DNA of 64,000 nucleotides, from NCBI RefSeq assembly GCF_001263175.1, contig NZ_CP012332.1, forward strand, positions 2,229,501 to 2,293,500, read 5' to 3'. Source of the stretch: Vulgatibacter incomptus (GTDB lineage Bacteria > Myxococcota > Myxococcia > Myxococcales > Vulgatibacteraceae). The first letter of the stretch is position 1; every line of letters begins with the position of its first letter. Under the pieces are notes generated by a model, which was not told the DNA's origin, searched no databases, and saw nothing but the letters and a program-made list of their open reading frames with translations. The position numbers and the translations under genes were made by a program. This document shows positions 22,555 through 55,487 of this stretch, piece by piece.

Positions 22555-22689
22555 TCAGAGCGTGTGAAGAAATCGGTCCCGCAGCAGCGGGCCCGACTTC
22601 TTCAGCCGCGCTCCGCGCGGAAACGCTCTTCTTTTCGTCTGCTCCGCCTTCGGCTTCGCGAGAGCTTTTGAATTCTTCACAAGCTCTCA
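22555..22689 (-). repeat. Structured 3'-end element, copy A
   Basis: This is one of five related ~130-bp elements. Sense is the minus strand, directly after the PBP1A gene, whose TGA (22687-22689) is the first triplet of the element. In sense order there are four structures. Hairpin 1 is GAGAGCTT...AAGCTCTC with an inner TGAA/TTCA pairing. Then comes the CGAAGCCGAAGGCGGAGCAG core, followed by a CCGCGC/GCGCGG hairpin. Last is a long hairpin with arms GAAGAA/TTCTTC, TCGG/CCGA and CCCGC/GCGGG interrupted by a single unpaired position. Confidence 0.85.
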
Positions 22690-25299
22690 GTGCTCCATCA
22701 TGAAGAGGTCGGGGTCGACGGTGCCGCCCGAATGCGACGACTCCTTCGTGGGCGCGGTGCCGACCTTGAACGGCAGGACCCTCGCGCCGGGGCCGGAGGC
22801 CGGCCTCCCGCTGCGGACGTCGACGGAGGCGAAGCTGATGCCCGCAGGGACCGGCCAGTTCCTGCCCGGCCTGCCGTCGAGCGCGTTCTCCATGTACTCG
22901 GTCCAGATCGGCAGCGCCGCCCGGCCGCCGTTCTCGTAGCGGCCCATCGGGGACGAGTCGTAGCGGTCGTAGCCGACCCAGACCCCCGCCACGAGATCGC
23001 GTGAGAAGCCCATGAACCACGCGTCGAAGGAGTCGTTGGTGGTGCCGGTCTTCCCCGCGATCGGCCACTTGTTGTTCAGGTAGCCGGAGCGGGCCGCGGT
23101 GCCGAAGAGCGTCACCTGGTGGAGGAGCTCGGTGGTGATGTAGGCGGTCTCGGGCGTGATCAGCCGCTCGGGCTCGTAGCCGAGCTCGGCGTAGCCTGCG
23201 AGGATCCGGTCGCCCAGCGGCGCCCATCCGTCGGCGTACCAGGTGTGGTCCTCGAGGGTACGCCCGAAGCGATCCTCCACCCTCCGCAGGAAGGTGGTCC
23301 GGGGCTTGGTCCCGAGGCGATCGAAGGTGGAGTAGACCTTCGCGAGATCCCAGAGCGTCACGCACGAAGAGCCGAGCGCGATCGAGAAGTCCTCGTTGAG
23401 CTTGCTGGTGATCCCGATCTTGTTCGCCCAGTCGACGGTGGCGCGAACGCCGAGGTTCTCGAGCGCCTTCACCGCCGGGACGTTCATCGAGTTGACCAGC
23501 GCGTGGGCCGCCGTGACCTCGCCCTGGAAGTCGAGGCCGTAGTTCTGGGGCTTCCAGCGGTTCTGGTTCGCGGGATCGTCGGCGACGATCGGCGCGTCGA
23601 TGAGGATCGACGCGGCGGTGAACGGCCGCGTCTTGGTGGGATCGGTGGTGTCCTTGCCCAGCTCGAGGTTGCCCGAGTAGACGATCGGCTTGAACGCCGA
23701 GCCGGGCTGACGGCAGGACTGGAACGCGCGGTTGAACTCGGAGGCGTCGAAGTCGTAGCCGCCGATCATCGCGACCACGTAGCCGCTCCACGGATCGAGC
23801 GAGACGGTCGCCCCCTGGAGCTTGGGCTCCTGCTCCAGGGCGAGGAAGAGGCCGTCGGCGCCGTAGGTCTTCTTCAGCGCGGGCTGCTCGGAGTCCATGC
23901 CGATGTCACGCCACGTGGAGCCGCGGACGATGAGGAGGTCGCCGACCGAGAGGGCGTCCTTGAGCGAGGAGATCAGCGCCGACGGGAAGTACGCCTCGGA
24001 GTTGGGCTTGCGCGCCCAGCGGGCCGCGGCCAGCGGGAGCTCCGCCGTCAGCTTCGTCCCCAGCTTCACGGTGGCGAGCTTCGGCCCCACCTCGGTGACG
24101 ATGCCGACGTAGAGGCGATCGCGCTCGAGCTTCGCGCCGCCCCGCTTGTCGAGGACCTCGTCGAAGCCCGCGAACCGCTTCGGCCACTCGGCCTTCGGCA
24201 CGTTGTCCAGCGGCCCGTAGTAGCCCTGCCGGTGATCGACGAAGTGGAGCCCCTTGAGCATCGCGTTCTGGGCGAAGCGCTGGTTCTCGCTGTTCATCGA
24301 GGACCAGATCTTCAGGCCCTCGTTGAGCATCCGCTGGTTGCCGTAGCGATCGACGACGTCGCGGCGGACGTGCTCGGCGAAGAACGGCGCGGTGTCGCCG
24401 AAGACGTCCTCCACGTGGTGGACCTTCACCGGCTGCGCCTGGGCCTCGTCCCGCTGGGCCTGGGAGATCATCCCCTCTTCGAACATCCGCCGGAGCACGT
24501 ACTTGCGCCTCTCGGCGGCGCGCTCGGGATAGACGAAGGGCGAGTACCGGGACGGCGCCTGGGGGAGCCCGGCGATCAGGGCCATCTCCGGCAGGGTGAG
24601 GTCCTCGACGTTCTTGCGGAAGTAGTTCTCCGCCGCCGACTGGACGCCGTAGCTGTGGTGGCCGAGGTAGACGTTGTTCAGGTAGAGCCAGAGGATCTCC
24701 TCCTTGGAGAACTTCTCCTCCAGCTCCAGCGCCAGGAGCAGCTCCTTCACCTTGCGCCGGATCGTCTTTTCGCGGCCCTTCTCGTAGCCCTCGGCCGAGA
24801 TCAGGAGGGCCTTCGCGGTCTGCTGGGTGAGGGTCGAACCGCCGCCGCGGACCCGCCCCGACGTGACCATCTTGAAGGCGGCGCCCGCGATCCCCTCGAC
24901 GTCGAAGCCGGGGTGGTCGAAGAACTTGCCGTCTTCGGCCGCGATGAAGGCCTGGATGAGCTTCTTCGGGATCCGCTCGTAGGAGACGACCTTGCGCCGC
25001 TCCTTGAAGAACTCGGCGATCAGCACCTCGTCGGTGGCGAAGGCCTCCGAGAGGATCGGCGGGTGCCACTGATCGAGGCGCGGCACCGGGGGTACGTCCC
25101 TGCCGTACTCCCGGTAGCCCCAGTACGCGGCGCCGGCGCCGGCGACGAGCACCAGGAAGAAGCCCGCGAGCGTGAGCCGGACCAGCCAGCGAAGCAGGCC
25201 CGCCTTCTTCTTCGTCTTCTTCGACTTGGCGCTCGGAGCGGGCTCCGGAGCCGAGGATTCACCCTGGGGCCTCGTGGGGCCCATGCCAGCGTCTGCCAT
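22687..25299 (-). CDS. Penicillin-binding protein 1A (class A, bifunctional)
   Basis: This 870-residue class A PBP builds and cross-links peptidoglycan. It has a cytoplasmic Lys/Pro-rich tail (1-33) and one TM helix (about 36-60). The GT51 transglycosylase domain (about 95-270) has catalytic E122 in AAEDGKFFDHPG, RGGGSTLTQQ and KVKELLLALELEEKFSKEEILWLYLN. The transpeptidase domain (about 490-810) has S534 and K537 in CRQPGSAFKP, SMN (HALVNSMN) and KTGTTND. An OB-like insert near 395-450 is typical of PBP1A. The stop codon is the first triplet of repeat copy A. It is separated by 11 bases from the upstream methyltransferase gene and probably follows it on one transcript. Confidence 0.93.
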   Translation of the reverse strand: MADAGMGPTRPQGESSAPEPAPSAKSKKTKKKAGLLRWLVRLTLAGFFLVLVAGAGAAYWGYREYGRDVPPVPRLDQWHPPILSEAFATDEVLIAEFFKERRKVVSYERIPKKLIQAFIAAEDGKFFDHPGFDVEGIAGAAFKMVTSGRVRGGGSTLTQQTAKALLISAEGYEKGREKTIRRKVKELLLALELEEKFSKEEILWLYLNNVYLGHHSYGVQSAAENYFRKNVEDLTLPEMALIAGLPQAPSRYSPFVYPERAAERRKYVLRRMFEEGMISQAQRDEAQAQPVKVHHVEDVFGDTAPFFAEHVRRDVVDRYGNQRMLNEGLKIWSSMNSENQRFAQNAMLKGLHFVDHRQGYYGPLDNVPKAEWPKRFAGFDEVLDKRGGAKLERDRLYVGIVTEVGPKLATVKLGTKLTAELPLAAARWARKPNSEAYFPSALISSLKDALSVGDLLIVRGSTWRDIGMDSEQPALKKTYGADGLFLALEQEPKLQGATVSLDPWSGYVVAMIGGYDFDASEFNRAFQSCRQPGSAFKPIVYSGNLELGKDTTDPTKTRPFTAASILIDAPIVADDPANQNRWKPQNYGLDFQGEVTAAHALVNSMNVPAVKALENLGVRATVDWANKIGITSKLNEDFSIALGSSCVTLWDLAKVYSTFDRLGTKPRTTFLRRVEDRFGRTLEDHTWYADGWAPLGDRILAGYAELGYEPERLITPETAYITTELLHQVTLFGTAARSGYLNNKWPIAGKTGTTNDSFDAWFMGFSRDLVAGVWVGYDRYDSSPMGRYENGGRAALPIWTEYMENALDGRPGRNWPVPAGISFASVDVRSGRPASGPGARVLPFKVGTAPTKESSHSGGTVDPDLFMMEH

Positions 25300-25310
25300 T
25301 GCGGGGCAGC

Positions 25311-26177
25311 CTAGAGCACCGCCGTCCCAGGCACAACGCCGGATCCCTCGAAGACCACCTCGGGCGCCCCTGCGAAGCGGCGCTTCATCACCTCAATCGC
25401 CTCCGGGTTGTGATCGACGAGGAGGAACCGCCTCCCCGCCTTCAGGGCGGCCTCACCGGTGGTGCCGCTCCCAGCGAAGAAGTCCAGGACCAGCCCCCCT
25501 GGCGGCGAGGACGCCTTCACGATCCGGCTCAGGATCCCGAGGGGCTTCTGTGTGGGATAGCCCAGCTTCTCCCTGCCCGTGGGGCTGACGATCGTGTGCC
25601 ACCAGGTGTCGGTGGGGAGCTTGCCCCTGGCGGCCTTCTCGGGGCCGACGAGGCCCGGCGCCATGTAGGGGATCCGGTCGATCTCGTCGGCGTTGAAGAG
25701 GTAGGCCTTCGCGTTCTTCGCGTAGAAGAGGATGTTGTCGTGCTTGGCGGGCCACCGCTTCCGCGTCCGGGCGCCGTAGTCGTAGGCCCAGACGATCTCG
25801 TTCAGGAAGCACGACCTCCCGAAGATCGAGTCGATCAGCACCTTGCAGTAGTGCACCTCGCGGTAGTCGACGTGGAAGTAGAAGCTCCCCGTGCGCTTGA
25901 GCACGCGGCGCGCCTCGACGATCCGGGGCTCGAGGAAACCCAGGTAGTCGTCGAAGCGGTCGGGGAAGGAGCGGGTCTCGCGCTCGACCGTCTGGTAGCG
26001 CCGGCCGTGGAAGCCCGCCCTGCCGCCGGTCTCCGTGCGGATGGCCGAGAGCGTCCTGCGGGACTGGACTCGGCCCGTGTTGAACGGCGGGTCGATGTAG
26101 ACGAGGTCGACCGACTCGGACGGCAACCCGGCCAGCACCTCCAGGTTGTCCCCGAAGACGACCCGGCCCGTCGTCAC
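25311..26177 (-). CDS. Orphan site-specific DNA methyltransferase (beta-class)
   Basis: This 288-residue amino-methyltransferase starts at a GTG overlapping the RluA-type gene stop by four bases. Motif IV DPPFNTG is N-terminal (D29) and the SAM-binding motif I FFAGSGTTG is C-terminal (about 233-241), the order of beta-class N6-adenine/N4-cytosine enzymes. Between them are GSFYFHVDYREVHYCK and WAYDYGARTRKRW, the likely target-recognition region. No restriction endonuclease gene adjoins it, so it is probably a solitary methylase acting in regulation or protection. The specificity cannot be predicted by eye. The operon order rluA-type, methylase, PBP1A is unusual. Confidence 0.85.
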   Translation of the reverse strand: MTTGRVVFGDNLEVLAGLPSESVDLVYIDPPFNTGRVQSRRTLSAIRTETGGRAGFHGRRYQTVERETRSFPDRFDDYLGFLEPRIVEARRVLKRTGSFYFHVDYREVHYCKVLIDSIFGRSCFLNEIVWAYDYGARTRKRWPAKHDNILFYAKNAKAYLFNADEIDRIPYMAPGLVGPEKAARGKLPTDTWWHTIVSPTGREKLGYPTQKPLGILSRIVKASSPPGGLVLDFFAGSGTTGEAALKAGRRFLLVDHNPEAIEVMKRRFAGAPEVVFEGSGVVPGTAVL

Positions 26178-27157
26178 GCCTTTTCCCCTTGGTCCGAGTC
26201 CTTCGGCAGCGTCCACGCGATCCCCGCGGCGTGGAGGACCTGAGCGAGCTCCCTGGGCAGCGGCGCCTGCACGACGAGGGGATTGCCGGTGACGGGATGC
26301 TCCAGCTCCAGCCTTCGGGCATGGAGGAACTGCCGGTCGAGCCCCCAGCCCTTCGCCACCTCGCGGTTGAACGGGAAGTCCCCGTAGCGCGAGTCGCCAG
26401 CCACCGGATGGCCGATGGCGGCGAGGTGGCGGCGGATCTGGTGGGTGCGGCCCGTCTCGATTGTGCACTCGAGGAGGCTCACGCCGGCGCCGCTCGCGAG
26501 CACGCGGAAGTGCGTGACGGCGGGCTGCATGTTTACGCCCCTCTCGGCCCGCGAGCGCGCGGTCTGCTGGTGCTCGGCGAGGGGCAGATCGATCGTGCCC
26601 TTCGGCCGGGGCATCCGGCCCTTCACGAGGGCGAGGTAGCGCTTGTGCGCCGCACCTTCCGTGAAGATCTCCGTGAGCCGCACCATCGCCTTGCGCTTCT
26701 TGGCGACGAGGATCACGCCGGAGGTCTCGCGGTCGAGGCGGTGCGCCGGGCTGGGCTTGAACTCCTTCTGCTCCTCGTCGACCTGGAGGTAGTGGCGAGC
26801 CCAGTCCACCAGGGTCCCGCCCTTGATCCCGGATCCCGGATGGACCGCCATCCCGCCCGGCTTGTCCACCGCGAGCACGGAGTCGTCCTCGTAGAGGATC
26901 GGCACCTCGGGCAGCTTGTGGACGCGGGGCTTCGGCGGGAGCGGCACGCCCGACGGTCCGGGCTGGACCACCCGGAACTCCACCACGTCTCCCGCCTGGA
27001 GCAGGTAGTCGTTCTGGGTCCGCTTGCCGTTCACCCGGATCCGCTTGGTGCGGATCATCTTGAAGATGCCGCTCAAGGGGACCTCGGCCAGCAGGCGCCT
27101 CGCCAGCTTGTCGATCCGCTGCCCTGCTTCGTCCTCGGAGATCGTCTGTTCGAACAC
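26174..27157 (-). CDS. RluA-family pseudouridine synthase
   Basis: This 327-residue RNA-modifying enzyme starts at GTG 27157. An N-terminal S4 domain (about 12-70; AGQRIDKLARRLL...RIRVNGKRTQND) precedes the catalytic domain with the HRLDRETSG motif (catalytic Asp), KRYLALV, and the C-terminal TGRTHQIRRHLA and LHARRLELEHPVTG. Domain layout and length fit RluC/RluD, which isomerise uridines in 23S rRNA. Its last codon overlaps the methyltransferase start (GTGA), so the two modification enzymes are translationally coupled. It is divergent from the toxin-antitoxin genes. Confidence 0.9.
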   Translation of the reverse strand: MFEQTISEDEAGQRIDKLARRLLAEVPLSGIFKMIRTKRIRVNGKRTQNDYLLQAGDVVEFRVVQPGPSGVPLPPKPRVHKLPEVPILYEDDSVLAVDKPGGMAVHPGSGIKGGTLVDWARHYLQVDEEQKEFKPSPAHRLDRETSGVILVAKKRKAMVRLTEIFTEGAAHKRYLALVKGRMPRPKGTIDLPLAEHQQTARSRAERGVNMQPAVTHFRVLASGAGVSLLECTIETGRTHQIRRHLAAIGHPVAGDSRYGDFPFNREVAKGWGLDRQFLHARRLELEHPVTGNPLVVQAPLPRELAQVLHAAGIAWTLPKDSDQGEKA

Positions 27158-27205
27158 GCCCGCCTTCTATCAGATGCAGGACTCCTCCGCAGGAAGGGAG
27201 ACTGC

Positions 27206-27234: not shown

Positions 27235-27259
27235 TTCAAACGATCAAGGAGGCGGCCGG

Positions 27260-28361: not shown

Positions 28362-28371
28362 TCCGACGGCC

Positions 28372-29643
<1,272 letters not shown>

Positions 29644-30866: not shown

Positions 30867-31634
30867 ATGTCGAACGTGGAGCTCTACAGCATGTCCTTCT
30901 GCCCCTTCGCGCAGCGCGCCCGGCTCATGCTGCGCCGCAAGGGCGTGGATTTCGCGACCCACGAGATCGACGTCACCAAGCCGAGGAGCGCGTCGTTCCT
31001 CCAGATCAATCCGGAGGGCAAGGTCCCCGTGATCCGCCACGAGGGCCGCGTGCTGAACGAGTCGAGCGTGATTTGCGAGTACCTCGAAGACGCCTTCCCC
31101 GAGCCGCCCACCCTCCCCCGCGAGCCCTACACGCGGGCCTTGGCGCGGATCATGGTCGACCACTGCAACAACCAGTTCGTGCCGCTCATGTACCGGCTGC
31201 TCATGAACCAGGACCGCTCCGCCGACGCGAAGCTCATCGACCAGGCGCTCGCCACCTGGAGGTGGGTGGACGAGCTCCTCAGCCGCCACAACCCGAACGG
31301 CACCTTCCTCGACGACCGGGACGGCTTCTCCCTGGCGGAGATCAACTACGCGCCGTTCTTCCAGCGGTATTGCCTGAACGAGCACTACCGGGGATTCCGG
31401 CTCCCCGACGAGGCCGGCTTCGCCCGCGTGCGCCGCTTCCGGGACGCGCTCCTCGGAGACGCCCTCGTCAAGGAGACGGGCATGTCGGACGAGGACTTCA
31501 TCAAGCTCTACTTCGACTACTCGCTGGGCTTCGGAAACGGGAGCGTCCCGCCGGGCCGCGAGCGCAGCTCCTTCGACCTCTCCGTTCCCCTCGCGGAGCG
31601 ACCGCTCCCGCCCGCCGCTCCCAGGGCCGTCTGA
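30867..31634 (+). CDS. Glutathione S-transferase family protein
   Basis: This 255-residue GST starts at ATG 30867 behind GGAAGGA. The N-terminal thioredoxin-like domain has SFCPFAQRARLML (catalytic-type C12, as in omega/beta GSTs), GKVPVIRHEGRVLNES and SSVICEYLEDAFP. An all-helical C-terminal domain starts at about residue 90. The Cys-based active site suggests thiol-transferase or dehydroascorbate-reductase-like activity rather than Ser/Tyr conjugation. The last ~25 residues are a Pro-rich tail. Repeat copy B begins right after its stop. No catabolic neighbours give a substrate hint. Confidence 0.87.
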   Translation: MSNVELYSMSFCPFAQRARLMLRRKGVDFATHEIDVTKPRSASFLQINPEGKVPVIRHEGRVLNESSVICEYLEDAFPEPPTLPREPYTRALARIMVDHCNNQFVPLMYRLLMNQDRSADAKLIDQALATWRWVDELLSRHNPNGTFLDDRDGFSLAEINYAPFFQRYCLNEHYRGFRLPDEAGFARVRRFRDALLGDALVKETGMSDEDFIKLYFDYSLGFGNGSVPPGRERSSFDLSVPLAERPLPPAAPRAV

Positions 31635-31639
31635 CACGC

Positions 31640-31777
31640 GGAGCCGACGGCGGAGCAGACGAAGAGCGTTTCCGCGCACGCGAAGCCGAAGGCGGAGCCA
31701 AGGAAAGGCGCGATCGCGCGAAGCGCGGCTGAATCAATCGGGCCCGCTTATGCGGGACCGATTGATTCTCTCGCTCA
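31640..31777 (+). repeat. Structured 3'-end element, copy B (variant, sense on plus strand)
   Basis: This copy lies between the GST stop and the convergent stop at 31775. It lacks the first hairpin but has the GAAGCCGAAGGCGGAGC core, a partly duplicated core at its start, the CGCGCGAAGCGCGG hairpin, and the main hairpin with changed arms (GAATCA/TGATTC instead of GAAGAA/TTCTTC). The inner TCGG/CCGA and CCCGC/GCGGG blocks are kept. It is the only copy whose sense strand is plus, matching the GST upstream. Confidence 0.7.
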
Positions 31778-33831: not shown

Positions 33832-33960
33832 TGAGCGTGTGAAGGAATCGGTCCCGCAGAAGCGGGTCCGACTCCTTCAGCCGCGCTTCGCGCGGAAACG
33901 CTCTTCTCTTCGTCTGCTCTGCCTTCGGCTTCGCAAGAGTTCGTGAATTCTTCACGAACT
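33832..33960 (-). repeat. Structured 3'-end element, copy C
   Basis: Sense is the minus strand, starting 17 bases after the lpxI stop (TAG, 33978-33980). Hairpin 1 is a perfect 10-bp stem AGTTCGTGAA/TTCACGAACT with a three-base loop. The main hairpin carries GAAGGA/TCCTTC where copy A has GAAGAA/TTCTTC, preserving pairing. It is positioned between two same-strand genes rather than between convergent genes. Confidence 0.85.
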
Positions 33961-33977: not shown

Positions 33978-34814
33978 CTACCTCCAGCTCCCGTCGGAGT
34001 CGGCGCCCACCAGGGCCAGCTTCGCCGCATCGGCGCGGGCGACGATCTCCTTCTCCTCCAGGATCACCGAGCGCGCCGCCTCGAAGACCAGCGCGCTCGC
34101 CCCAATCTCCACACAGGTGTTCACGGTGCCGGGGCCGATGCACGGCGCGTCGAAGCGCATGTCCTGCTCGGGCATGGCGAACTTCACCACCACCACGCCC
34201 TTGCCCACCAGCTCGCCGGCCCGGCGGATGCACCGATCCGTGCCCTCCATCCCCTCCACCGCCACGACCACCCCGCCCTTGGTGCAGACCGTCTGGCCCA
34301 CCTCGGCCCGGCTGATGGCGTTCGAGACCTTCACGCCCAGGCGGATGTCCGCCTCCATCGCCGAGTCCGGCTTGTACCTGCCGTACGCACCCTTGCGGGC
34401 CATCAGGTCGGGACAGTACGGCGCAGGGTCGACGATGCGGACGCCCTCCTCCTCGAACATCGAGGCGACGGCTCGGAGCAGGCTGTCGTTGTCGAAGCGC
34501 TTGAGCTTGGGCGCGTGCTTCAGCGCCATGAGGTCCGGGCGGAGGCCGCCCCAGAGGTTCACCTTGGCGACGCCCCCCGCCATCGCGGCGGCGTCGACGC
34601 CCGCCTTCCGGAAGGCCTTCACCATCTTGCCGAGCTGACCGAGGTGGACCCAGGTGACCTCGTCGCAAACGGACTCGAGCGAACGGTCCGCGTCGCCCTC
34701 GTGGGCCACGCAGACCACCCGGTGGCCCGACCGCTTCGCGCTCTCGGCGAACCGCAGGGGAAAGACGCCTGAACCTGCGATCAGCCCGATGGTCGGAGAG
34801 ACGGCTGCTTCCAT
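33978..34814 (-). CDS. lpxI: UDP-2,3-diacylglucosamine pyrophosphatase LpxI
   Basis: This 278-residue LpxI (DUF1009) protein hydrolyses UDP-2,3-diacylglucosamine to lipid X and UMP in lipid A synthesis. Visible features are the N-terminal IGLIAGSGVFPLRFAESAKR, HLGQLGKMVKAFRKAGV, LWGGLRPDLMAL, DNDSLLRAV, and the C-terminal catalytic domain with TVCTKGGVVVAVEGMEGTD, FDAPCIGPGTVN and GASALVFEAARS. Many proteobacteria use LpxH instead; LpxI is found in alpha- and some delta-lineage bacteria. It starts eight bases after lpxA and belongs to the bamA-lpxI operon. Confidence 0.93.
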   Translation of the reverse strand: MEAAVSPTIGLIAGSGVFPLRFAESAKRSGHRVVCVAHEGDADRSLESVCDEVTWVHLGQLGKMVKAFRKAGVDAAAMAGGVAKVNLWGGLRPDLMALKHAPKLKRFDNDSLLRAVASMFEEEGVRIVDPAPYCPDLMARKGAYGRYKPDSAMEADIRLGVKVSNAISRAEVGQTVCTKGGVVVAVEGMEGTDRCIRRAGELVGKGVVVVKFAMPEQDMRFDAPCIGPGTVNTCVEIGASALVFEAARSVILEEKEIVARADAAKLALVGADSDGSWR

Positions 34815-41398: not shown

Positions 41399-41531
41399 TC
41401 AGAGCGTATGAAGAAATCGCCCCCGAGGAGCGGGAGCGATTTCTTCATCTCGCGCTACGCGCGAAAAGCGCTCCCTTTCGTTTGCTCGCCTCCGGCTCGC
41501 GAGAGTTCGTGAATTTCTTCACGAACTCTCA
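41399..41531 (-). repeat. Structured 3'-end element, copy D (most diverged but best paired)
   Basis: Sense is the minus strand, after the acyl-CoA ligase gene, whose TGA (41529-41531) overlaps the element. Hairpin 1 is a perfect 13-bp stem GAGAGTTCGTGAA/TTCACGAACTCTC closed by GAAA, a GNRA tetraloop. The main hairpin has ATGAAGAAATCGC and its exact complement as outer arm, with paired changes against the other copies (TCGC/GCGA for TCGG/CCGA). The third hairpin is TCGCGC/GCGCGA. Confidence 0.85.
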
Positions 41532-43367
41532 GTCGAACTTCTCCTCGTAGAGGGCGTCGAGCACGGCTCGGTAGTGCTCGGTCGTGACCTTGCGCTTCAC
41601 CTTGAGCGAGGGCGTGAGCTCGCCGGTCTCCACCGTGAAGTCCCGGGGAGCGATCGCGAACTTCTTGATCGTCTCGTACGAGGGGAGCGTCGCGTTCAGC
41701 CGGGCGACGGCGGCCTCGACCTCCATCCGGATCTCCGGACGACGGGAGAGCTCCTCGTAGCTCGAGACCGTGATTCCCCTCGAAGCGAGGAGCTTGCGGC
41801 CGTACTCGTCCTGGACCGTAATCAGCGCGGTGAGGAACTTGCGCTTGTCGCCGTACACCATCGCCTGGCTGACGATGGGCTCGGTCTTGAGCGCGTTCTC
41901 GAGGTTCTGCGGCGGAACGTTCTTCCCGCCGGCGGTGACGATGATGTCCTTCTTGCGGTCGGTGATCCGGAGGTAGCCGTCCGCGTCGAGGGTGCCGATG
42001 TCGCCCGTGTGGAACCATCCGTCCGGATCGAGGACCTCGGCGGTGGCGTCAGGCCGATTGTAGTAGCCCTTCATCACACCGCCGCCGCGGACGAGGATCT
42101 CGCCGTCCCCCGCGATCCGGAACTCGGTGCCGGGCACTGCCGGACCGACCGTGCCGATCTTGTTGCGCCCCGGGACGTTCACGGCCGTCCCGGCCGCTGT
42201 CTCGGTGAGGCCCCAGCCCTCGAGAACCTGGAGGCCGAGCAGATCGAAGAACCAGGCGATCTTGGGCGAGAGCGGCGCGCCGCCCGAGACGAAGACCCGC
42301 ATCCGGCCGCCGAGCCGCTCCTCCTTGAGCGTCTTCGCAACCTTCGAGAAAACGAGCTTCTTGGCGAGGGTCCAGCCCAGGCCGCCGTAGATCCGCCCCT
42401 CGCTCCTCGCCTCGGCATATTCGTCGAAGAGGGAGAGCGCCCAGCGGAAGAGCATGCCCTTCAGGCCGGGCGCGGCGGTTCCCGTCCCGACGACCGACGC
42501 GAAGACCTTCTCGAAGACGCGGGGAACCGCCGGAATGAGCGACGGCCGGATCTCCGCCGCGTTCTCGACCACCTTGTCCGGCGCTTCGGCGAAGCACATC
42601 TCGGCGCCGAGGTGCCACCACACGGCCTGGACCACCTGCGCGAAGGAGTGGGCCAGCGGGAGGAAGAACAGGATCGAGTCGCCCGGCCGGAAGATCGCGA
42701 TCTGCGCCACCGAGGCCGCCTCGTAGCACCAGTTCCGGTGGGTCAGGACCACGCCCTTGGGGTTGCCCGTGGTGCCAGAGGTATAGAGGAGCGTCGCCGT
42801 CCGATCGGCCTCGATCGCGGCGCATCGCTGGTCGAAGGCGTCGGGCTCACGGCCGCCCGCCTCCTTGCCCATCCTCTCGAGCTCGGTCAGCGGAATCACC
42901 CAATCGGCGTCCGAAGGCGAGACCTCGCCATCCATGAGGATGGCCTTTCGGAGCTCGGGGAGGGCCGCGCGGCTGCCCCGGACCTTCGCGAGCTGCGTCT
43001 CGTTCTCGACGAAGACCAGGGAGGAGCCGCTGTCGCGCAGGATGTACTCCACCTCGGACGCGAGGAACGACTGGTAGATCGGCACCGCGACCGCCCGGGC
43101 CGCGAAAGCGCCCGCCGTCGACAAGGAGTGTTCGACCCGCGTCGAGGCCACGAGCGCGATGCGGTCGTCCGGCTGCACTCCCAGCGCGATCAGTCCGTCG
43201 GAGATCGTCCGGGTCCGCGCGACCAGCTCCTCCCAGGAGAGGCTCCGCCAGGCGCCCCCCTGCTTGAACCGGGTCGCGATCGCCTTCGGCTCGATGGCGG
43301 CGCGATCCAGGAGCATGCGGACGACGTTGACCGGGATCGGGAAGCTGCTTCCTGCCTGCTGGGACAT
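41529..43367 (-). CDS. Long-chain fatty-acid--CoA ligase (AMP-forming)
   Basis: This 612-residue ANL-superfamily enzyme has the P-loop LLYTSGTTGNPKGVVLTH, A5 motif GWGLTETAAG, A7 GWFHTGDIG, A8 ITDRKKDIIVTAGGKNVPP (hinge and CoA-side residues) and C-terminal catalytic Lys region (SLKVKRK). Length and motif set match bubblegum/FadD15-like long-chain ligases. The start at 43367 is favoured because GAGG lies six bases upstream; ATGs at 43385 and 43424 lack an RBS. It activates fatty acids for degradation or lipid synthesis. It is divergent from lon; the stop is embedded in repeat copy D. Confidence 0.9.
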   Translation of the reverse strand: MSQQAGSSFPIPVNVVRMLLDRAAIEPKAIATRFKQGGAWRSLSWEELVARTRTISDGLIALGVQPDDRIALVASTRVEHSLSTAGAFAARAVAVPIYQSFLASEVEYILRDSGSSLVFVENETQLAKVRGSRAALPELRKAILMDGEVSPSDADWVIPLTELERMGKEAGGREPDAFDQRCAAIEADRTATLLYTSGTTGNPKGVVLTHRNWCYEAASVAQIAIFRPGDSILFFLPLAHSFAQVVQAVWWHLGAEMCFAEAPDKVVENAAEIRPSLIPAVPRVFEKVFASVVGTGTAAPGLKGMLFRWALSLFDEYAEARSEGRIYGGLGWTLAKKLVFSKVAKTLKEERLGGRMRVFVSGGAPLSPKIAWFFDLLGLQVLEGWGLTETAAGTAVNVPGRNKIGTVGPAVPGTEFRIAGDGEILVRGGGVMKGYYNRPDATAEVLDPDGWFHTGDIGTLDADGYLRITDRKKDIIVTAGGKNVPPQNLENALKTEPIVSQAMVYGDKRKFLTALITVQDEYGRKLLASRGITVSSYEELSRRPEIRMEVEAAVARLNATLPSYETIKKFAIAPRDFTVETGELTPSLKVKRKVTTEHYRAVLDALYEEKFD

Positions 43368-43692
43368 CACGGCCTCGGCTCTCATGGCGTACCCCGATGA
43401 AAGGTGCGGCCCCGCCTCGCGCAACCAAGCGCCGGCGAGTGAATCGACTCCCTAGGCGATTTGCAAAGGAGGTCGATTCGTACCACGTGCAAAACTGACC
43501 CGGCAACGATTCGAGCCCCATCTGGTTGCCAAGACGCAATCCGTTGCCAAGTTGGGGCCTAGTTGAGCCAATGCCAACCGTGAGGGGCCTCCCGGCACCG
43601 CGCGGAAGGAAGCCCCCGGGGCGGACTGACCGACGTCCCGGGCTTTGCGGCGAGGGGCCCTTTGGCCCCTCGGTGACGAGAGCGAGACCCGC
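43368..43692. promoter_or_regulatory. Divergent control region between acyl-CoA ligase and lon
   Basis: This is the only gap over 300 bases. It contains an 8-bp inverted repeat (GAATCGAC 43441-43448, GTCGATTC 43472-43479) and two direct repeats GTTGCCAAG (43525-43533 and 43543-43551, 18 bases start to start, close to two helical turns). A GC-rich hairpin (about 43610-43645) follows, then a perfect 9-bp hairpin CGAGGGGCC/GGCCCCTCG (43651-43659, 43664-43672) 20 bases before the lon ATG. No confident -35/-10 pair is visible. The direct repeats could bind a stress regulator; the 5' hairpins would be in the lon leader RNA. Confidence 0.45.
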
Positions 43693-49548: not shown

Positions 49549-49557
49549 CGTCGTCTC

Positions 49558-51000
49558 CTAGTCGAGGAGCTGGAGCTTCACGTCGCTCTCGGCCTTGCGG
49601 TAGCTGTCCTGGCCGTCCTCGATCATCCGCTGGACCTGCTGGCTGGCGGGGTTCACCACCGTCGGCGTGACGAAGATCACGAGCTCGCGCTCGACGTCGT
49701 CGATGGTCCGCTGCTTGAACAGCTCGCCGATGATCGGAACGCTCCCCAGCCCCGGGACCTTCGAGACCACCTTCTGCTGATCGCGGCTGAACACGCCCGA
49801 GAGCACGATGGTCTCGCCGTTGCGCACCGTGACGTTGGTCTTCACCGATCGGCTGCGAAAGCCCGGGACGGCGACGGTTCCGCCGACGGAGACGGCGACC
49901 GAGCGATCGATCTCGGAGACCTCCGCCTCGATCTCGGTCCGGACGTTCCCGAAGCGATCGGCCGTGGGACGGATGCGCAGGATGATCCCGTACTTGTGGT
50001 AGACGACCGTCGCGCTGCTCTGGGTGATGAGCGGGACCGGCACCTCGCCGCCCGCCAGGAACTCGGCCTGATCGCCCGACGCGCAGACCAGCGTGGGCCG
50101 GGCCAGCAGCCGGCCGTCGCCCTGATCGAGCGCGAGGCGCAGCGAGCCCTGCGCGTTCGCCACGAGGCTGGTCGCGAGGGTCCCGGTCGCGTCGGTGAGG
50201 CCCGGGAGCCCCGAGGTGCCCACGGCCGCTACGTCGACCTCGGCGCTCACGTCGGTCGGAAGCCGCAGGCCGAAGTTGAGGAGCTGGCTGCTGCGGACCT
50301 CGACGAACTGGACCTCCGAGAGGACCATCCGCTTCACACCCACCGTGAGCATGTTCTCGACCTTCTCGCCGTAGGCCTTCGCGATGAGCTCGGCCTTCCG
50401 AAGGTCCGGCTCCGACTCGACGGATCCCTCTAGGAAGATCGTGGAGCCCACCACCTGGGCGGAGGCGCCGCGGAGTCCGTGCTGGACGAAGGCGTCGTTG
50501 AGCCGGCCCGCGACCTGGCGCCGCGCCTCCGGCGAGAGCTTCACGAAGGAGCGGGCCGTCGGGTAGACCGCCACCACCTCCTCGGCCCGGCGAAAGTCGT
50601 CCGCCGTGAGGGCCTCGCCGTCGAGGAGCACGCGATCGCCGACGGCGTGGACGACGATCCCTTCCACGTCCCCGAGGAGACGGCGGACCTCGTCGGCTGT
50701 CTCGTCGACCGAAACGCTCCGGACCACGATGTTGTAGCTGTCGCGGGTACCGTTCGAGCGCCAGACGAGGAGCGTGGTCCTCCCGACCTGGCCGCCGAGG
50801 ATCAGCATCTGGCTCGAGCCCAGGGGCTTCACGTCGGCCACGTTGGGGTCGCCGACGGCGATCCGGCTGACGCCTCCCGGCACGGAGAGGACCTTCTGCG
50901 TGCCGACGCCGAGGTGGAGGGTCTGCTCGGCTGCGAGCGCTCCGGCCGCAGGAGCGAGGAGGCAGAGCACGAGGGCGATGCGGGCCAGAGGAGAGCTCAC
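49558..51000 (-). CDS. cpaC: Tad-type secretin CpaC/RcpA
   Basis: This 480-residue outer-membrane secretin starts at a GTG overlapping the cpaA stop (GTGA). It has a signal peptide (to about residue 24, GALAAEQ). The N-domain carries the pilus secretin motif (LHLGVGTQKVLSVPGGVSRIAVGDPNVADV), the BON-like middle has GSVESEPDLRKAELIAKAYG, and the secretin domain has FVEVRSSQLLNFGLRL, ISRDQQ-type VFSRDQQKVVSKVPGLGSVPIIGELF and ELVIFVTPTVV. It forms the outer-membrane channel for a Flp pilus or a related secretion system. It is followed 9 bases later by FHA-CpaF. Confidence 0.92.
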   Translation of the reverse strand: MSSPLARIALVLCLLAPAAGALAAEQTLHLGVGTQKVLSVPGGVSRIAVGDPNVADVKPLGSSQMLILGGQVGRTTLLVWRSNGTRDSYNIVVRSVSVDETADEVRRLLGDVEGIVVHAVGDRVLLDGEALTADDFRRAEEVVAVYPTARSFVKLSPEARRQVAGRLNDAFVQHGLRGASAQVVGSTIFLEGSVESEPDLRKAELIAKAYGEKVENMLTVGVKRMVLSEVQFVEVRSSQLLNFGLRLPTDVSAEVDVAAVGTSGLPGLTDATGTLATSLVANAQGSLRLALDQGDGRLLARPTLVCASGDQAEFLAGGEVPVPLITQSSATVVYHKYGIILRIRPTADRFGNVRTEIEAEVSEIDRSVAVSVGGTVAVPGFRSRSVKTNVTVRNGETIVLSGVFSRDQQKVVSKVPGLGSVPIIGELFKQRTIDDVERELVIFVTPTVVNPASQQVQRMIEDGQDSYRKAESDVKLQLLD

Positions 51001-51533
51001 CACCCGCCTCCGACGAAGAGCGAGGCCACCGTCCCCGCGACGATCGCGACTCCGTAGGGGAGCCACGCTGTCCGCTCGCCCAGCTCAGCGCCGCCTCGGC
51101 GAATGCGCAGCGCCCGGAGGAGCAGGAACCAGACGTTGCGGATGGTCTCACCCAGCGTGCCCGCCTGAATCACCACGGCGAAGGCCAGGAGACCGCCGGC
51201 GATCGCCGTGAGGAGGAGCGCGCCGAGGATCCGCTCCCAGCCCAGGATGGCGCCGACCGCGCCGGCGAGCTTGACGTCCCCCATCCCCATTCCGCCCGTC
51301 CACGCCGGGAGCAGGAAGGCGGCGAGGCCGACCGCGGCGCCGACGAGGCCGCTCGCGAGACCCAGCGGCGAGTCCCATCCGGCGAGGAGGAGACGCGCCG
51401 CCAGAGCGAGCCCGATCGTCGGCAGGGTCACGACGTCGAGGATCTTCCGCGAGCGCAGGTCGGTCGCGAGAGAGACCGAGAGGCAGAACGCGAGGAGAGC
51501 GTAGAGGATCGAGGGGGCTGCGCCGGGGGCCAT
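50997..51533 (-). CDS. cpaA: Prepilin peptidase CpaA/TadV
   Basis: This 178-residue membrane aspartyl protease has about five or six helices. Catalytic Asp candidates are in LATDLRSRKI (first) and GMGMGDVKLAGAVGA (second, the GxGDVKL signature). The short form without an N-methylation Cys domain is typical of TadV/CpaA, which process Flp-type prepilins. It starts at ATG 51533 and is the first gene of the Tad cluster here. No Flp pilin gene is in the 183-base gap upstream, where one normally occurs. Confidence 0.9.
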   Translation of the reverse strand: MAPGAAPSILYALLAFCLSVSLATDLRSRKILDVVTLPTIGLALAARLLLAGWDSPLGLASGLVGAAVGLAAFLLPAWTGGMGMGDVKLAGAVGAILGWERILGALLLTAIAGGLLAFAVVIQAGTLGETIRNVWFLLLRALRIRRGGAELGERTAWLPYGVAIVAGTVASLFVGGGW

Positions 51534-51548
51534 GTTCGACTCCGAGCT

Positions 51549-51594
51549 ACCGTGATTGATCTCGATTGATCACGGTGAGCAGGAAGCGGGCCAG
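51549..51594 (-). promoter_or_regulatory. Candidate sigma54 promoter and inverted repeat upstream of cpaA
   Basis: On the minus strand, 51594-51578 reads CTGGCCCGCTTCCTGCT, matching 11 of 14 fixed positions of the -24/-12 consensus (YTGGCACGRNNNTTGCW), including the invariant GG and GC ten bases apart, 45 bases before cpaA. Between it and the gene lies an 8-bp inverted repeat, ACCGTGAT (51549-51556) and ATCACGGT (51569-51576), with a TGATCTCGATTG centre. Confidence 0.4.
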
Positions 51595-51716
51595 GCGTGC
51601 AAAGCCTCGAAATTACGGGGTATCGTCCTTTGCCAAGGAGGCGGGGCCGGCGGAGCTGCGGGCCCCTGGCCCGAGCCGCGGGCCGCCTGGAGGCGGCCTC
51701 ATCGGGCGCGCAGGCG

Positions 51717-53831
51717 CTACTGGAGGACCTTGAACGCGCCGTCTGCGGGCGTCACCGCCTCGGGAAAGAAGCCCAACACCGTGTCCGCGCCGCTGTAGGC
51801 GACGAAGATCTTCCAGGTGGGGCTGGCGCCGTCGCTGAGCATGAACGGCGTCATCGCTGCCGCAATCAGCCGATTTGGAATCGGCGCGGCACGGAAGAAG
51901 GCGAAGCCACTCGAGGTCGACCAGGCGAAGATCGTCCCCCTCGCGACCGAGCCCGGGGGCGGCGGCGTGAACGCGAAGAGCAGATCGCTCGCAGCGAAGG
52001 CGCTCGAGGTCTGGGCGTCGGATGCCCGCCCAACGAAGCCGGTCACGGAGCCCGTGAGGGTCCAGGGGAGCGCCTTGGGCGGCAGGATGTCCAGGCGAAG
52101 CCCTGCCGCCGCGCACCCGTCCGGATTGACGAGCCCCGCGGGGTGGAGATCAACCACGAGGGAACGGCCGTCCGGCGCGACCCCGGTGATGGGGAAACCG
52201 TCGCAGACCAGCGTGCCGGTGATCCGGGGAACCAGGCGATCCGCGAGGAGGGGATCGCTGGAGGCGACGAGCGGAATCGGAGAGAGGAAGGTCACGGCCG
52301 AGCCCACGGGAAGCGCGAACGTGCCGGTGACGAGGTCCTCGATGCTGCCGACGTCGTCGAATCCCGGGAGCGGGTTCTCGAAGGCCCCCTCCCAGGTCTC
52401 GTTCAGCGGCCGCGCGCCCGGGGGCAGCGTCACGCTGGGGACCGCGGCCGCCCCGGTGCCGCGACGGGAGCCGGCCCGAAGGGTCGGAGTGGTGATGGCG
52501 GGGCCCTTCTGCACCGAGCTCAGCAGGAAGACGGGATCCGGCGCGGCTCGGGCCCCGGTGCCCTCGAGGAAGGTGCCGAGACCGCCGGCGAGGTAGGTGA
52601 TCTCCCCATCGGTGGAGTTGAAGAGCGTGAGCTCCGGCAGGCCGATGGCTGCCACGTGGTTCCCATCGGCGTTGAGCGTGGCGGCGTTGAAAGCGTTCAC
52701 CACGGTGAAGGTCCCGTTGATCGCGATCACGCCGAGCTGCGCTCCAGGGAGCTGGAAGGCCGCGGGGCCCCCCGTCGTCGCGTCGACCGCGAGGGTGCCG
52801 GGCTGGCCCGGAACGCCGCCGAGGTCCACCACGGCGACGTTGGGGCAGAGCATCGTCCCGGCGCAGAAGGAGGGCTCGAGCACCACGAAGAGCCGCCCCG
52901 AGCGCTGGGCGCAGGGATCGGCCACGAGGGCCGCTTCGAGCGCCGGCGTCAGCGCGGGCGAGGGAGCGAACGCCACGGCCCGCGCGGCGGCGACGCGCTC
53001 CTCGATGGAGCCGTCGGGGAGCGTCACCGGCACGCGCAGCTCGATGCGCTCGGCCTCGCTCACCGGGTCCAGCGAGATCGCGCCGTCCGCGGCGATCCGC
53101 GCCTTGGTGAGCCAGACGCCGGGGACGTGGTCCGGCGAGAGGTTCGCGTCGGCGATCGCCACGGTGCGGCAATCGAGATCCACGCCCGGAATGGGCGCCT
53201 GGGTCCCCGGCGGATCGAGGGCGATGCCCGCGGGAAAGATCCCTGGGAGGTCGATGGTCGTGGCGATGGACGGCAACGGCTCGGTGCTCGTGCTCGTCAC
53301 TAGGTGTGGAGGACGAATCGCGACGAGGCTCCCGCCGTCCCCGTCCGGCGAGAGGCCGGCGAGGAGGAAGTGGTCGGCGAGGGCGCCGCCCTCCGCGAAG
53401 CCGAAGGCGCCGGTGAAGGCGACGCCGGCAGTGGGAACGGTGTCGACGGCGATCGTGATCGGGAAGCCGTCGGGGCCGTCCACGCTCCGGGGCCCGAAGG
53501 CCCCGGGGGGGACCTCCGTGTCGACGAAGCCGACCTCGGCGGCCGAGCCGGAGACCACGAAGACGAAGCGCCGCGCGGCCTCGACCTCGATCGGCGTGTT
53601 CACCGTGGGGATGGAGAGCGGAAAGAGCGCCGCCGGCCCGACCAGGAACTCGCTCGTGCCCACGTCGACGACCTTGAGGTCGTTGCTGCCCTGGTTGGCG
53701 ATGAAGAGGCGACCGCTGGGCTCGTGGGCCGCCAGCGACACGGGAGTGTCGAGGTTGCCGAAGGAGGCGATGATGGTCTCGCCGCAGCCTGCGGCGGCGA
53801 CGATGGCGAGGGTCGCGAGGATGCGGCGCAT
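51717..53831 (-). CDS. Beta-propeller-like lipoprotein, 704 aa
   Basis: The lipoprotein signal ends AAAGC (C16). The mature protein has repeated beta segments with YncE-type character in the first ~150 residues (PVSLAAHEPSGRLFIANQGSNDLKVVDV, not continuous here), then a long beta-rich body with few helices and several Cys (DLDCRTVAIAD, PCAQRSG, FCAGTMLCPNVAVVD). It is probably anchored in a membrane facing the periplasm or the cell surface. The ATG at 53831 shares one base with the stop of the upstream, similar lipoprotein gene, so the two are translated together. No enzyme motif is seen. A role in surface binding or adhesion is only a guess. Confidence 0.75.
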   Translation of the reverse strand: MRRILATLAIVAAAGCGETIIASFGNLDTPVSLAAHEPSGRLFIANQGSNDLKVVDVGTSEFLVGPAALFPLSIPTVNTPIEVEAARRFVFVVSGSAAEVGFVDTEVPPGAFGPRSVDGPDGFPITIAVDTVPTAGVAFTGAFGFAEGGALADHFLLAGLSPDGDGGSLVAIRPPHLVTSTSTEPLPSIATTIDLPGIFPAGIALDPPGTQAPIPGVDLDCRTVAIADANLSPDHVPGVWLTKARIAADGAISLDPVSEAERIELRVPVTLPDGSIEERVAAARAVAFAPSPALTPALEAALVADPCAQRSGRLFVVLEPSFCAGTMLCPNVAVVDLGGVPGQPGTLAVDATTGGPAAFQLPGAQLGVIAINGTFTVVNAFNAATLNADGNHVAAIGLPELTLFNSTDGEITYLAGGLGTFLEGTGARAAPDPVFLLSSVQKGPAITTPTLRAGSRRGTGAAAVPSVTLPPGARPLNETWEGAFENPLPGFDDVGSIEDLVTGTFALPVGSAVTFLSPIPLVASSDPLLADRLVPRITGTLVCDGFPITGVAPDGRSLVVDLHPAGLVNPDGCAAAGLRLDILPPKALPWTLTGSVTGFVGRASDAQTSSAFAASDLLFAFTPPPPGSVARGTIFAWSTSSGFAFFRAAPIPNRLIAAAMTPFMLSDGASPTWKIFVAYSGADTVLGFFPEAVTPADGAFKVLQ

Positions 53832-55243
53832 CAGAACGCCCCTTCCTGGACGCGGCCCAGGCGCGCGACCACGCGGGCGCTCTCCGGGCGGAAGAGCTCG
53901 AGGAGATCCACTACCCCGATCGTCCCCTGGGAGAACGACGGCGTGTAGATCCGCACCCCCGCCCCGTTCGGCCGGACGGCGAGCTCGGAGGGCGTTCCGC
54001 CCAGGCCGGTGACGAAGCCTGCGAGGACGCCGACGCGCATGTCGAAGAAGGCAATCCCGTCCGTGGTCGTAACGGCGACCAGGTCGCTGGGGCTGCCGTC
54101 CGGGAGCGTCCGCGGGATGGTGACGACGGAGTTGGGTCCGATCGGCGACGGGATCTGGTCCGCGGTGGCGAAGCGGGGGGTCTCGCCGGTCGCAGGCGGG
54201 AGCTCGGGGCACGCGGCGCCGGGCGGCACCACGGTCCCCTCGGGGAGGATGCAGCCATCGGTTGGGAGCGAGGGGATCCGGGTCACGTCGATCACGGCCA
54301 GCGCCGCTGGGAAGTGGGTGGCGAGGAAGACGTCGGCGGCGTCGGAGGAGACGGCGATTCCGCGGGAATCGGCGCCGTTCTCCTGAGGCGCGAGGTTGCG
54401 GGAGAAGAGCGGCCCGAGGATCGGAACACCCGCCTGGAAGTCGAAGAGGAAGACCTGCTGGTTGCCCGCGTCCATCGAGCGTCCCGACGCATAGAGCGTG
54501 CAGATCGGTGCGCCGTCGGCGCCCGGGCGACAGCCTCCCGCTGCGAGCCCCCCGATGGCGGTGTTGCCCACGTCGATCGTCTGGAGAGCGCCTCCGCCGA
54601 GGGACCAGAAATGGGCGTCGGCCTTGGCGGTGCCGATGACGCCTCCGGTGGGCGAGATCCGCGTCGTCGAGAAGTGCCCGACGTAGAGGTTTCCGAGGGA
54701 GACGACGATGCTGTAGGGGTCCGGCCTGGGGAAGGAGGCGCCTCCTGTGACGCAGAGGGTGCCCCCGAAGGAACAGGCGAGCCGGCTCGCGTCGAGGTCC
54801 GCGGCGACCACCGAGTTGCTGCCCCGGACCGGGACGAAGGCGCGCTGGAGGCCGGGCGCGAGCTGGGCCACCGCGACCTGGCCGCCGTAGTCGCCGATCT
54901 CGACGGCGCCCACGAAGGCGCTCGTGATGTCGGGGACGTTCACCGGGGCGCAGCTCGGATTCGCAGCCGGGCAGGCGGGATTCGGGGGCGCCTCCTCGAT
55001 CAGCCGATCGAGGGTCGCGAGGTCGAAGGCGTGGAGCACGCCCGAGCGGAAGCGGAGGTCGAAGTTGCTGGAGACCACCAGCAGCCGGGTCGGGACGGTC
55101 GGATCCTCGGGCGTAATCGCGATCCCGGTCGGGAACTGGAGCGACCCGAGGGGCGGCGGCGCCCCGTCCTCCGATCGGGCGCAGCCGGCGAAGAGCAGCG
55201 CCAGGGCGACGGGGAGGACGGGAAAGGAAGAGGTGGGGCTCAC
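53831..55243 (-). CDS. Beta-propeller-like lipoprotein, 470 aa
   Basis: The chosen GTG at 55243 gives a compact lipoprotein signal (MSPTSSFPVLPVALALLFAGC, split at the lipidated C21); a TTG at 55258 would add five residues. The mature chain carries repeated WD/YncE-like blades (GSLQFPTGIAITPEDP, RLLVVSSNFDLRF, RAFVPVRGSNSVVAADL, NLYVGHFSTTRISP, DSRGIAVSSDAADVFLATH), suggesting a six- or seven-bladed propeller. Several Cys pairs (ACPAANPSCAP) may form disulfides. It is the first of a two-gene unit with the 704-residue lipoprotein and follows repeat copy E. Confidence 0.75.
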   Translation of the reverse strand: MSPTSSFPVLPVALALLFAGCARSEDGAPPPLGSLQFPTGIAITPEDPTVPTRLLVVSSNFDLRFRSGVLHAFDLATLDRLIEEAPPNPACPAANPSCAPVNVPDITSAFVGAVEIGDYGGQVAVAQLAPGLQRAFVPVRGSNSVVAADLDASRLACSFGGTLCVTGGASFPRPDPYSIVVSLGNLYVGHFSTTRISPTGGVIGTAKADAHFWSLGGGALQTIDVGNTAIGGLAAGGCRPGADGAPICTLYASGRSMDAGNQQVFLFDFQAGVPILGPLFSRNLAPQENGADSRGIAVSSDAADVFLATHFPAALAVIDVTRIPSLPTDGCILPEGTVVPPGAACPELPPATGETPRFATADQIPSPIGPNSVVTIPRTLPDGSPSDLVAVTTTDGIAFFDMRVGVLAGFVTGLGGTPSELAVRPNGAGVRIYTPSFSQGTIGVVDLLELFRPESARVVARLGRVQEGAF

Positions 55244-55352
55244 GCAGCTCGCTCGCAAAGGGCGCGAAGATAGGTCTCCGCTTCGAAAGGGGTCAAGGAC
55301 AACCGGCCCCCGGCGCCGGGCGAAGCCGTGCCGCCCGGCCCTGGTTCCGCCC

Positions 55353-55487
55353 GAGCGTGTGAAGAAATCGGCTCCGCTTGAAGCGGACCCGATTTCTTCA
55401 GCCGCGCTCCGCGCGGAGACGCTCCTCTTTTCGTCCGCTCCGCCTTCGGCGCCGGTGAGGTCGTGAATACCTTCACGACCTCACCGG
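55353..55487 (-). repeat. Structured 3'-end element, copy E
   Basis: Sense is the minus strand. The glyS stop TGA (55481-55483) lies inside hairpin 1, a perfect 16-bp stem (55452-55467 with 55472-55487) closed by four bases. The main hairpin has arms TGAAGAAATCGG/CCGATTTCTTCA and TCCGC/GCGGA, again with one unpaired position between blocks. The CCGCGC/GCGCGG hairpin and GCCGAAGGCGGAGC core are present. The element separates glyS from the beta-propeller lipoprotein genes. Confidence 0.88.

What the first reader, a model, noticed from the sequence alone, without database searches (positions are those of the whole stretch)
22555..55487. Five-copy family of structured elements attached to gene 3' ends
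Related ~130-bp sequences occur at 22555-22689, 31640-31777, 33832-33960, 41399-41531 and 55353-55487. All five lie immediately behind a stop codon and in the orientation of that gene (four minus, one plus), although the genes (PBP1A, GST, lpxI, acyl-CoA ligase, glyS) are unrelated. Four ordered hairpins are recognisable. Pairing is conserved while sequence changes: main-hairpin arms GAAGAA/TTCTTC, GAAGGA/TCCTTC and GAATCA/TGATTC, and inner TCGG/CCGA against TCGC/GCGA. One unpaired position inside the long stem is kept in all five. Covariation of this kind suggests selection on an RNA (or cruciform) structure, for example a termination, mRNA-stability or transposase-recognised REP-like unit. 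It is not a known element I can name.
Basis: partly seen in the sequence, partly recalled or inferred. Interest (0 to 1): 0.85.

Follow-up and report, generated by a model that had tools for sequence, protein, structure and literature searches.

The report
Structured mobile repeat at stop codons
A short, hairpin-rich DNA repeat has spread to more than a hundred places in one bacterium's genome, often landing right behind the stop signal of a gene and a few times inside genes without shifting their reading frame; it is a new family of a known kind of miniature mobile element.

Summary
No credible copy was found in 194 other genomes of the phylum (capped scoring) or, with one copy as query, in plasmid and phage records.

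Anatomy: optional hairpin H1, small hairpin H2, and a stem closing over H3 and the long H4. Pairing is kept while letters change: 22 of 34 body pairs show a change on both sides.

Best reading: a MITE-like, non-autonomous mobile element. Full copies (mostly 122-132 bp) have inverted termini, and 21 of 36 carry TGA on both sides. Two copies are in-frame insertions, in lnt and a helicase gene, when aligned with relatives.

27 of 36 H1-bearing copies sit on the TGA stop of a same-strand gene; three lie inside genes. No mobilising enzyme was identified.

The parts
22555..22689 (-).
   Evidence: 123.7 bits; TGA/TGA, 129 nt
31638..31776 (+). Composite copy without H1, with a doubled H2 module, starting 3 nt after the TGA (31632-31634) of ORF 30867-31634
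   Evidence: (90.8 bits for 31680-31776)
33833..33960 (-). Copy with a slightly worn H1, 17 nt after the TAG of ORF 33978-34814
   Evidence: (120.9 bits)
41399..41531 (-). Full copy of the second sequence type (CGCGAGCC...): TGA (41529-41531, stop of an acyl-CoA ligase-like ORF 41529-43424) + 127-nt element (41402-41528) + second TGA (41399-41401)
   Evidence: (81.8 bits)
55353..55487 (-). Full copy; the stop codon TGA of glyS (55481-55483) lies inside the H1 stem, with matching letters in the other arm; the TGA is shifted 1-2 nt from the usual junction
   Evidence: 112.5 bits; glyS reaches model position 683 of 684

Best explanation
The family is a MITE-like, non-autonomous mobile repeat. A full copy runs 5'-GAGC(T/C)(T/C)GTGAAGAA (or GAGTTCGTGAAGAA) ... 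TTCTTCACACGCTC-3', mostly 122-132 bp, with inverted termini and usually TGA on both sides. I read the two TGAs as a 3-bp target duplication (inferred). An unidentified transposase inserted it repeatedly. Surviving full copies concentrate at native TGA stop codons in the sense direction, where the gene keeps a stop and its full protein. Insertions inside genes are tolerated when they keep the frame: the three H1-bearing copies inside genes are 129, 129 and 123 nt long, all multiples of three. The fold (H1, H2, and a stem closing over H3 and H4) is kept by compensatory change. G.U exceeds A.C in H4, which points to folding of the sense strand as RNA or single-stranded DNA. The likely effect at a stop codon is a hairpin barrier just behind the terminating ribosome and at the mRNA 3' end (inferred, not tested). 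Shown here: spread, boundaries, insertion, placement bias, covariation. Inferred: the enzyme, the duplication mechanism and any RNA effect.
For: Dispersed family: 128 places merged from 143 matches. Discrete unit: copies up to 99.2% identical with unrelated flanks. Empty sites: lnt carries 43 extra residues; of 16 relatives aligned (of 24 relative loci fetched), 11 have no residue there and 5 distant ones have 3 to about 19 other residues. A UvrD-like helicase carries about 31-36 extra residues against 14 of 16 relatives aligned (of 19 fetched); two distant rows align less clearly. Two further copies are open in frame: in an intein inside dnaE, and in a protein without a Pfam match. TGA on both flanks in 21 of 36 full copies; left and right TGA go together (Fisher one-sided 3.7e-5). 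27 of 36 sit on the TGA stop of a same-strand gene (23 exactly, 4 shifted 1-2 nt), against 211 of 849 extragenic TGAs being stops in element-free gaps. Stops look native: 7 of 20 proteins scanned (of 27 such genes listed) match a model to within 3 positions of its end and 10 residues of their own end, among them GlyS, RsmI and two acyl-CoA dehydrogenases. Covariation. H4: 49 G.U against 11 A.C cells. No credible copy in 194 phylum genomes.
Against: No autonomous parent or cognate transposase was found. Three PF01797 loci lack a diagnostic element motif. None of six PF01609 loci holds the element's end motif; four are copies of one IS with different ends; the ends of the other two were not determined. 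Flanks that are not TGA do not match each other (for example GGA/CGA, GGA/GGC), so the duplication is seen only where both are TGA. Of the 105 aligned bodies 69 lack H1, and with it the 5' inverted terminus, yet one of these looks like a unit insertion. The lnt insertion is 43 residues, not the 44 expected from 129 + 3 nt. Copies are paralogues in subfamilies, so the shuffle controls overstate covariation; one measure (further pair types on A3) was reached by 34 of 500 shuffles. Over the whole body alignment G.U (135) exceeds A.C (89) less clearly than in H4. The second sequence type matches the 3' terminus at only 11 of 14 positions.
Confidence: 0.75

Rival explanations
1. A host-encoded 3'-UTR RNA element (terminator, mRNA stabiliser or translation-termination brake) that spread because it is useful at gene ends.
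For: Sense 62 against antisense 19 in tandem gaps; convergent gaps over-represented (24 of 121 copies against 10% of intergenic bases); H1 fused to stop codons; covariation; G.U over A.C in H4.
Against: 16 of 121 copies lie between divergent genes and four more are open in frame inside genes, including lnt and an intein. H4 is followed by CACGCTC or close variants, with no U run. No credible copy in 194 phylum genomes.
Confidence: 0.15
2. A REP/REPIN-type repeat moved as single-stranded DNA by a RAYT (Y1) transposase.
For: Three PF01797 matches in the genome, one above the cut-off; imperfect hairpins; placement at 3' ends as in published REPs (PMC3733652, passages).
Against: None of the three fetched loci (3.2-3.3 kb each) carries a diagnostic element motif. 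The unit is much longer than the 20-40 bp given for REPs. It has inverted termini with TGA flanks. Copies show no obvious strand bias along the chromosome, 62 plus and 66 minus.
Confidence: 0.12
3. Integron attC-like recombination sites attached to gene 3' ends.
For: Similar length (recalled), folded structure with an unpaired position, and position behind genes in sense.
Against: Copies are scattered singly over the chromosome and also lie inside genes. By eye the termini lack an attC-type core pair (GTTRRRY, recalled; alignments). No integrase was searched for.
Confidence: 0.01

Closest known systems
ERIC / YPAL (RU-1 / RU-2) of enterobacteria
   Same: About 127-168 bp palindromic MITE-like units, many per genome, mostly intergenic, with some fused into reading frames (PMC2759123, abstract start and passages)
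   Different: No sequence comparison made; different host phylum; here most full copies are fused to TGA stops in sense
Rickettsia palindromic elements (RPE)
   Same: About 150-bp structured repeats inserted in frame in unrelated genes (PMC10969869, passages)
   Different: RPEs are noted for frequent in-frame insertions; here four of 128 places were found in frame inside a gene
REP / SMAG / REPIN repeats with RAYT transposases
   Same: High copy, hairpins, placement downstream of genes, frequent G-T pairing; GTAG REP termini often supply a TAG stop and some lie inside ORFs (PMC3733652, passages)
   Different: Unit about 100-130 nt with up to four hairpins and inverted termini; TGA not TAG; no PF01797 locus carrying it
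MITEs in general
   Same: Small, terminal inverted repeats, short direct repeats at the flanks, many copies
   Different: Parent insertion sequence not found; most copies lack the 5' terminus; strong stop-codon and sense bias

Membership tests
MITE | Terminal inverted repeats | tested here: met
   5' GAGCTTGTGAAGAA against reverse complement of the 3' end GAGCGTGTGAAGAA: 13 of 14; second type GAGTTCGTGAAGAA 11 of 14 (sequences). Not met in the 69 of 105 aligned bodies without H1
MITE | Target-site duplication | tested here: inconclusive
   TGA on both sides in 21 of 36; the other flanks do not match each other
MITE | Empty sites in relatives | tested here: met
   lnt (11 of 16 relatives with no residue there, 5 with a few others) and helicase (14 of 16 clear); seen at protein level only
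MITE | Parent transposon with the same ends | tested here: not met
   PF01609 and PF01797 loci only; other transposase families not searched
REP/RAYT | RAYT gene flanked by the repeat | tested here: not met
   three PF01797 loci, no diagnostic element motif
REP/RAYT | GTAG or CGTC tag beside a 20-40 bp palindrome | tested here: inconclusive
   by eye, the first sequence type reads CGTC next to H2 on the reverse strand and the second type CGTT (alignment); no other support
RPE | In-frame insertion in coding genes | tested here: met
   four copies open in frame; two checked against relatives
RPE | Sequence homology to Rickettsia RPE families | not tested
   no RPE sequences compared
Intrinsic terminator | G+C-rich hairpin followed by a U run | tested here: not met
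   H4 is followed by CACGCTC or close variants (inspection); the terminator scan tool was not run
Known Rfam RNA family | Match above gathering score | tested here: not met
   0 matches in the window; best weak match over the 22555 copy 23.9 bits against a cut-off of 79
Integron attC | Paired core sites at the ends | tested here: inconclusive
   not seen by eye at the termini; motif recalled, no tool scan made

The most novel reading that the evidence does not exclude
The element's insertion machinery (or an RNA-linked copying route) is directed to native TGA stop codons in the sense orientation: it duplicates the stop, so the host protein is untouched, and the stop codon becomes the foot of a hairpin. 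That would be a translation-signal-guided, nearly harmless niche for a mobile element.
Probability: 0.25. Interest if true: 0.75.

Novelty: new variant of a known kind. Interest (0 to 1): 0.5.

Why it matters
It gives a large natural set of hairpins fused exactly to stop codons, with matched copies elsewhere and inside genes. This makes two questions directly testable: whether a mobile element can target stop codons, and what a strong stem right behind a stop codon does to ribosome release and mRNA stability. It also adds a further lineage, besides Rickettsia and enterobacteria, in which small palindromic DNA is written in frame into genes, here lnt and an intein in dnaE.

Tried and rejected
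Chance repeats: rejected. Rfam family: none above cut-off. tRNA-like: none in the window. Homologue in relative G034 (31 bits): rejected; it is a gene end followed by an ordinary hairpin with a T run. Homologues in the 26 scattered genome contigs and one viral contig that share the 20-letter core: rejected; their best score is 19.8 bits; those tools may leave out records very near the window's own genome. RAYT cargo: not supported. Parent insertion sequence: PF01609 gave six matches; four are copies of one IS of about 1.37 kb with ends CTAGCAGGTTGCTGAA, unlike the element, a fifth is about 83-84% similar to it, and the sixth is unrelated to these at the BLAST level used; ends of the last two were not determined. 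Lagging-strand insertion: no obvious strand bias. A transposase family whose ends and target would fit (IS1031 group of IS5: GAG ends, TNA target) is recalled only and was not confirmed. Literature searches for insertion at stop codons found nothing to the point; one search gave one review, seen in the listing only. One search covered a guessed organism name; listing only.

Limits and rows dropped: one search scored 150 of 8,589 first-look candidates, so the family may be larger; searches scored 67 and 20 candidates a genome with stricter filters; the lists were cut. Of 129 places, 23 (22 weak or partial plus one pattern-only) were left out of the pair counts, and one composite (3717146) from the body alignment, leaving 105. 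Contig-end duplicates 4339491 and 4345048 were left out. Seven places not in a gap between genes, and the pattern-only place, are outside the 121. Two H1-position hairpins of unrelated sequence (323675, 1968162) are among the 39 H1 rows but not in the 36 rows. The 36 and the 36 come from different filters and are not the same set.

Full report
WHAT IS THERE. The five copies are present as described. The window is positions 2,229,501-2,293,500 of a single-contig 4,350,553-base genome. From its size and G+C content (69%) I guess Vulgatibacter incomptus; that name is recalled and no call confirms it. A covariance model built from 39 copies gave 143 matches at E <= 0.1 in this genome, from 150 scored of 8,589 first-look candidates, so the count is a lower bound. 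I merged overlapping, opposite-strand, composite-part and contig-end duplicates to 128 places (one search lists 129, one of them pattern-only). Of these, 106 score 66.8 bits or more and 22 score 21.6 to 58.0. Several of the weak ones are visibly partial, such as a copy in which the 5' end runs straight into H4 (1146870); the weakest may be chance.

ANATOMY. In the sense direction: H1 (for example GAGCTTGTGAA/TTCACAAGCTC, extended at its foot by the GA of a TGA and a matching TC), present in 36 of the 105 aligned strong bodies; H2 (GCGGAGCCGAAGGCGGAGC, or in a second type CGCGAGCCGGAGGCGAGC); an A-rich linker; then GAGCG...CGCTC closing over H3 (CGCGCGnAGCGCG) and the long H4. A composite form has H2 doubled, as in the 31640 copy. 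One intact copy (977657) folds 6.7 standard deviations below shuffles.

COVARIATION. On 36 copies with H1, 14 of 47 pairs show a change on both sides, with 96.3% of cells paired; slid controls pair 28-50%. In H1 alone 7 of 13 pairs do so. On 105 bodies, 22 of 34 pairs do so, 14 of 17 in H4. No shuffle of 500 reached the observed values, except that 34 of 500 reached the number of further pair types on the 36-copy alignment. Copies form subfamilies, so this is not a probability. In H4, G.U cells (49) outnumber A.C cells (11). Over the whole body structure the figures are 135 and 89, where one column pair that is mostly unpaired (48 A.C) and one helix-end pair (62 U.G) dominate. This supports folding of the sense strand, as RNA or as single-stranded DNA.

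PLACEMENT. No annotation was available, so genes were called with a codon-usage score trained on 18 long ORFs of the window. Of 121 copies in gaps between genes, 81 lie in tandem gaps (62 sense, 19 antisense), 24 in convergent gaps and 16 in divergent gaps. In element-free gaps the same classes hold 58%, 10% and 33% of intergenic bases. So 3' ends and the sense direction are favoured, not required. Of 36 copies with H1 and an intact 3' end, 27 sit on the TGA stop of a same-strand gene (23 exactly, 4 shifted by one or two bases), 3 lie inside genes and 6 elsewhere. In element-free gaps only 211 of 849 extragenic TGAs are stops. Where it could be judged, the stops look native rather than created: GlyS reaches position 683 of 684 of its model, RsmI 272 of 275, acyl-CoA dehydrogenases 377 of 378 and 399 of 400, an acyl-CoA ligase 584 of 585, a permease 408 of 411 and a PilZ protein 100 of 102. 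That is 7 of 20 proteins scanned, out of 27 such genes; the other 13 had no family match or a match that ends before the C-terminus, which is not evidence either way.

INSERTION. The strongest evidence is inside genes. In lnt, 43 extra residues encoded by the element are missing in the relatives: of 16 aligned (of 24 relative loci fetched), 11 have no residue there and 5 distant ones have 3 to about 19 unrelated residues. In a UvrD-like helicase about 31-36 extra residues stand against 14 of 16 relatives aligned (of 19 fetched); two distant rows align less clearly, and the same-family genome G001 has only a weak match. That copy lacks H1. A third copy lies in an intein (Pfam Intein_splicing, residues 559-955 of the translated stretch) inside dnaE, at about residue 834, and a fourth in a protein without a Pfam match; these two were not compared with relatives. 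The three H1-bearing copies inside genes are 129, 129 and 123 nt long, all multiples of three. Copies up to 99.2% identical have unrelated flanks. Twenty-one of 36 full copies carry TGA on both sides; left and right TGA go together (one-sided Fisher 3.7e-5), while non-TGA flanks do not match each other. I read this as a 3-bp duplication of a TGA target, which remains an inference.

DISTRIBUTION. No credible copy was found in 59 relatives or in 194 other genomes of the phylum; both searches used stricter filters and scored at most 67 and 20 candidates a genome. The single weak hit is not homologous. Core-pattern matches in 26 named genome contigs and one viral contig do not hold up. Plasmids and phages gave no match to one copy used as query. 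These collections may leave out records very near the window's own genome.

ENGINE. Not found. The genome has three matches to the Y1 transposase family (one above its cut-off), with no diagnostic element motif in their loci, and six PF01609 matches, none with the element's end motif in its locus; four of these belong to one insertion sequence whose ends differ. Other transposase families were not searched. There is no obvious strand bias along the chromosome.

COMPARISON. Published small repeats share single traits: ERIC and YPAL are intergenic MITE-like units sometimes fused to reading frames (PMC2759123, passages); RPEs insert in frame (PMC10969869, passages); REPs favour gene 3' ends, often pair G with T, often supply a TAG stop and sometimes lie in ORFs (PMC3733652, passages); REPs within 15 nt of a stop are reported to stall ribosomes (PMC12306157, passages). 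The combination seen here, full-length copies fused to TGA stops in sense with TGA on both sides and a covarying four-hairpin fold, I did not find in the searches made; the library lacks most subscription papers. I therefore file it as a new family and a variant of a known kind, not as a member of REP, RPE, ERIC or attC.

Noticed in passing
G000:C1:4334161-4350553 and 1-16393: Contig ends appear to overlap by 16,393 bases (10,199 of 10,199 compared bases identical at that offset; the rest was not compared): probably an untrimmed circular join, so genes there are counted twice.
   Followed up: partly
G000:C1:2208895-2213046 (L149): dnaE is interrupted by an intein, and the intein itself carries one copy of the repeat in frame.
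   Followed up: partly
L061 and L063: Two Y1-transposase-like genes are preceded by repeats of GACATGGGTGACACT or close variants, possibly their own recognition sites (sequence printed).
   Followed up: no
L290-L293: Four copies of one insertion sequence of about 1.37 kb, 99.8-100% identical, with ends CTAGCAGGTTGCTGAA: apparently recent transposition.
   Followed up: partly
window 61443-62295: Tandem 261-base repeats in the ORF 61223-62929 (-), looking like repeated domains of one protein.
   Followed up: no
G000:C1:2160072, 1214501, 2678860, 1753584: H1-only or otherwise truncated derivatives of the repeat, showing loss of the middle or the 3' part.
   Followed up: partly
G000:C1:1968162 and 323675: Unrelated hairpins occupy the place of H1 in front of H1-less copies, perhaps native terminators used as landing sites.
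   Followed up: no
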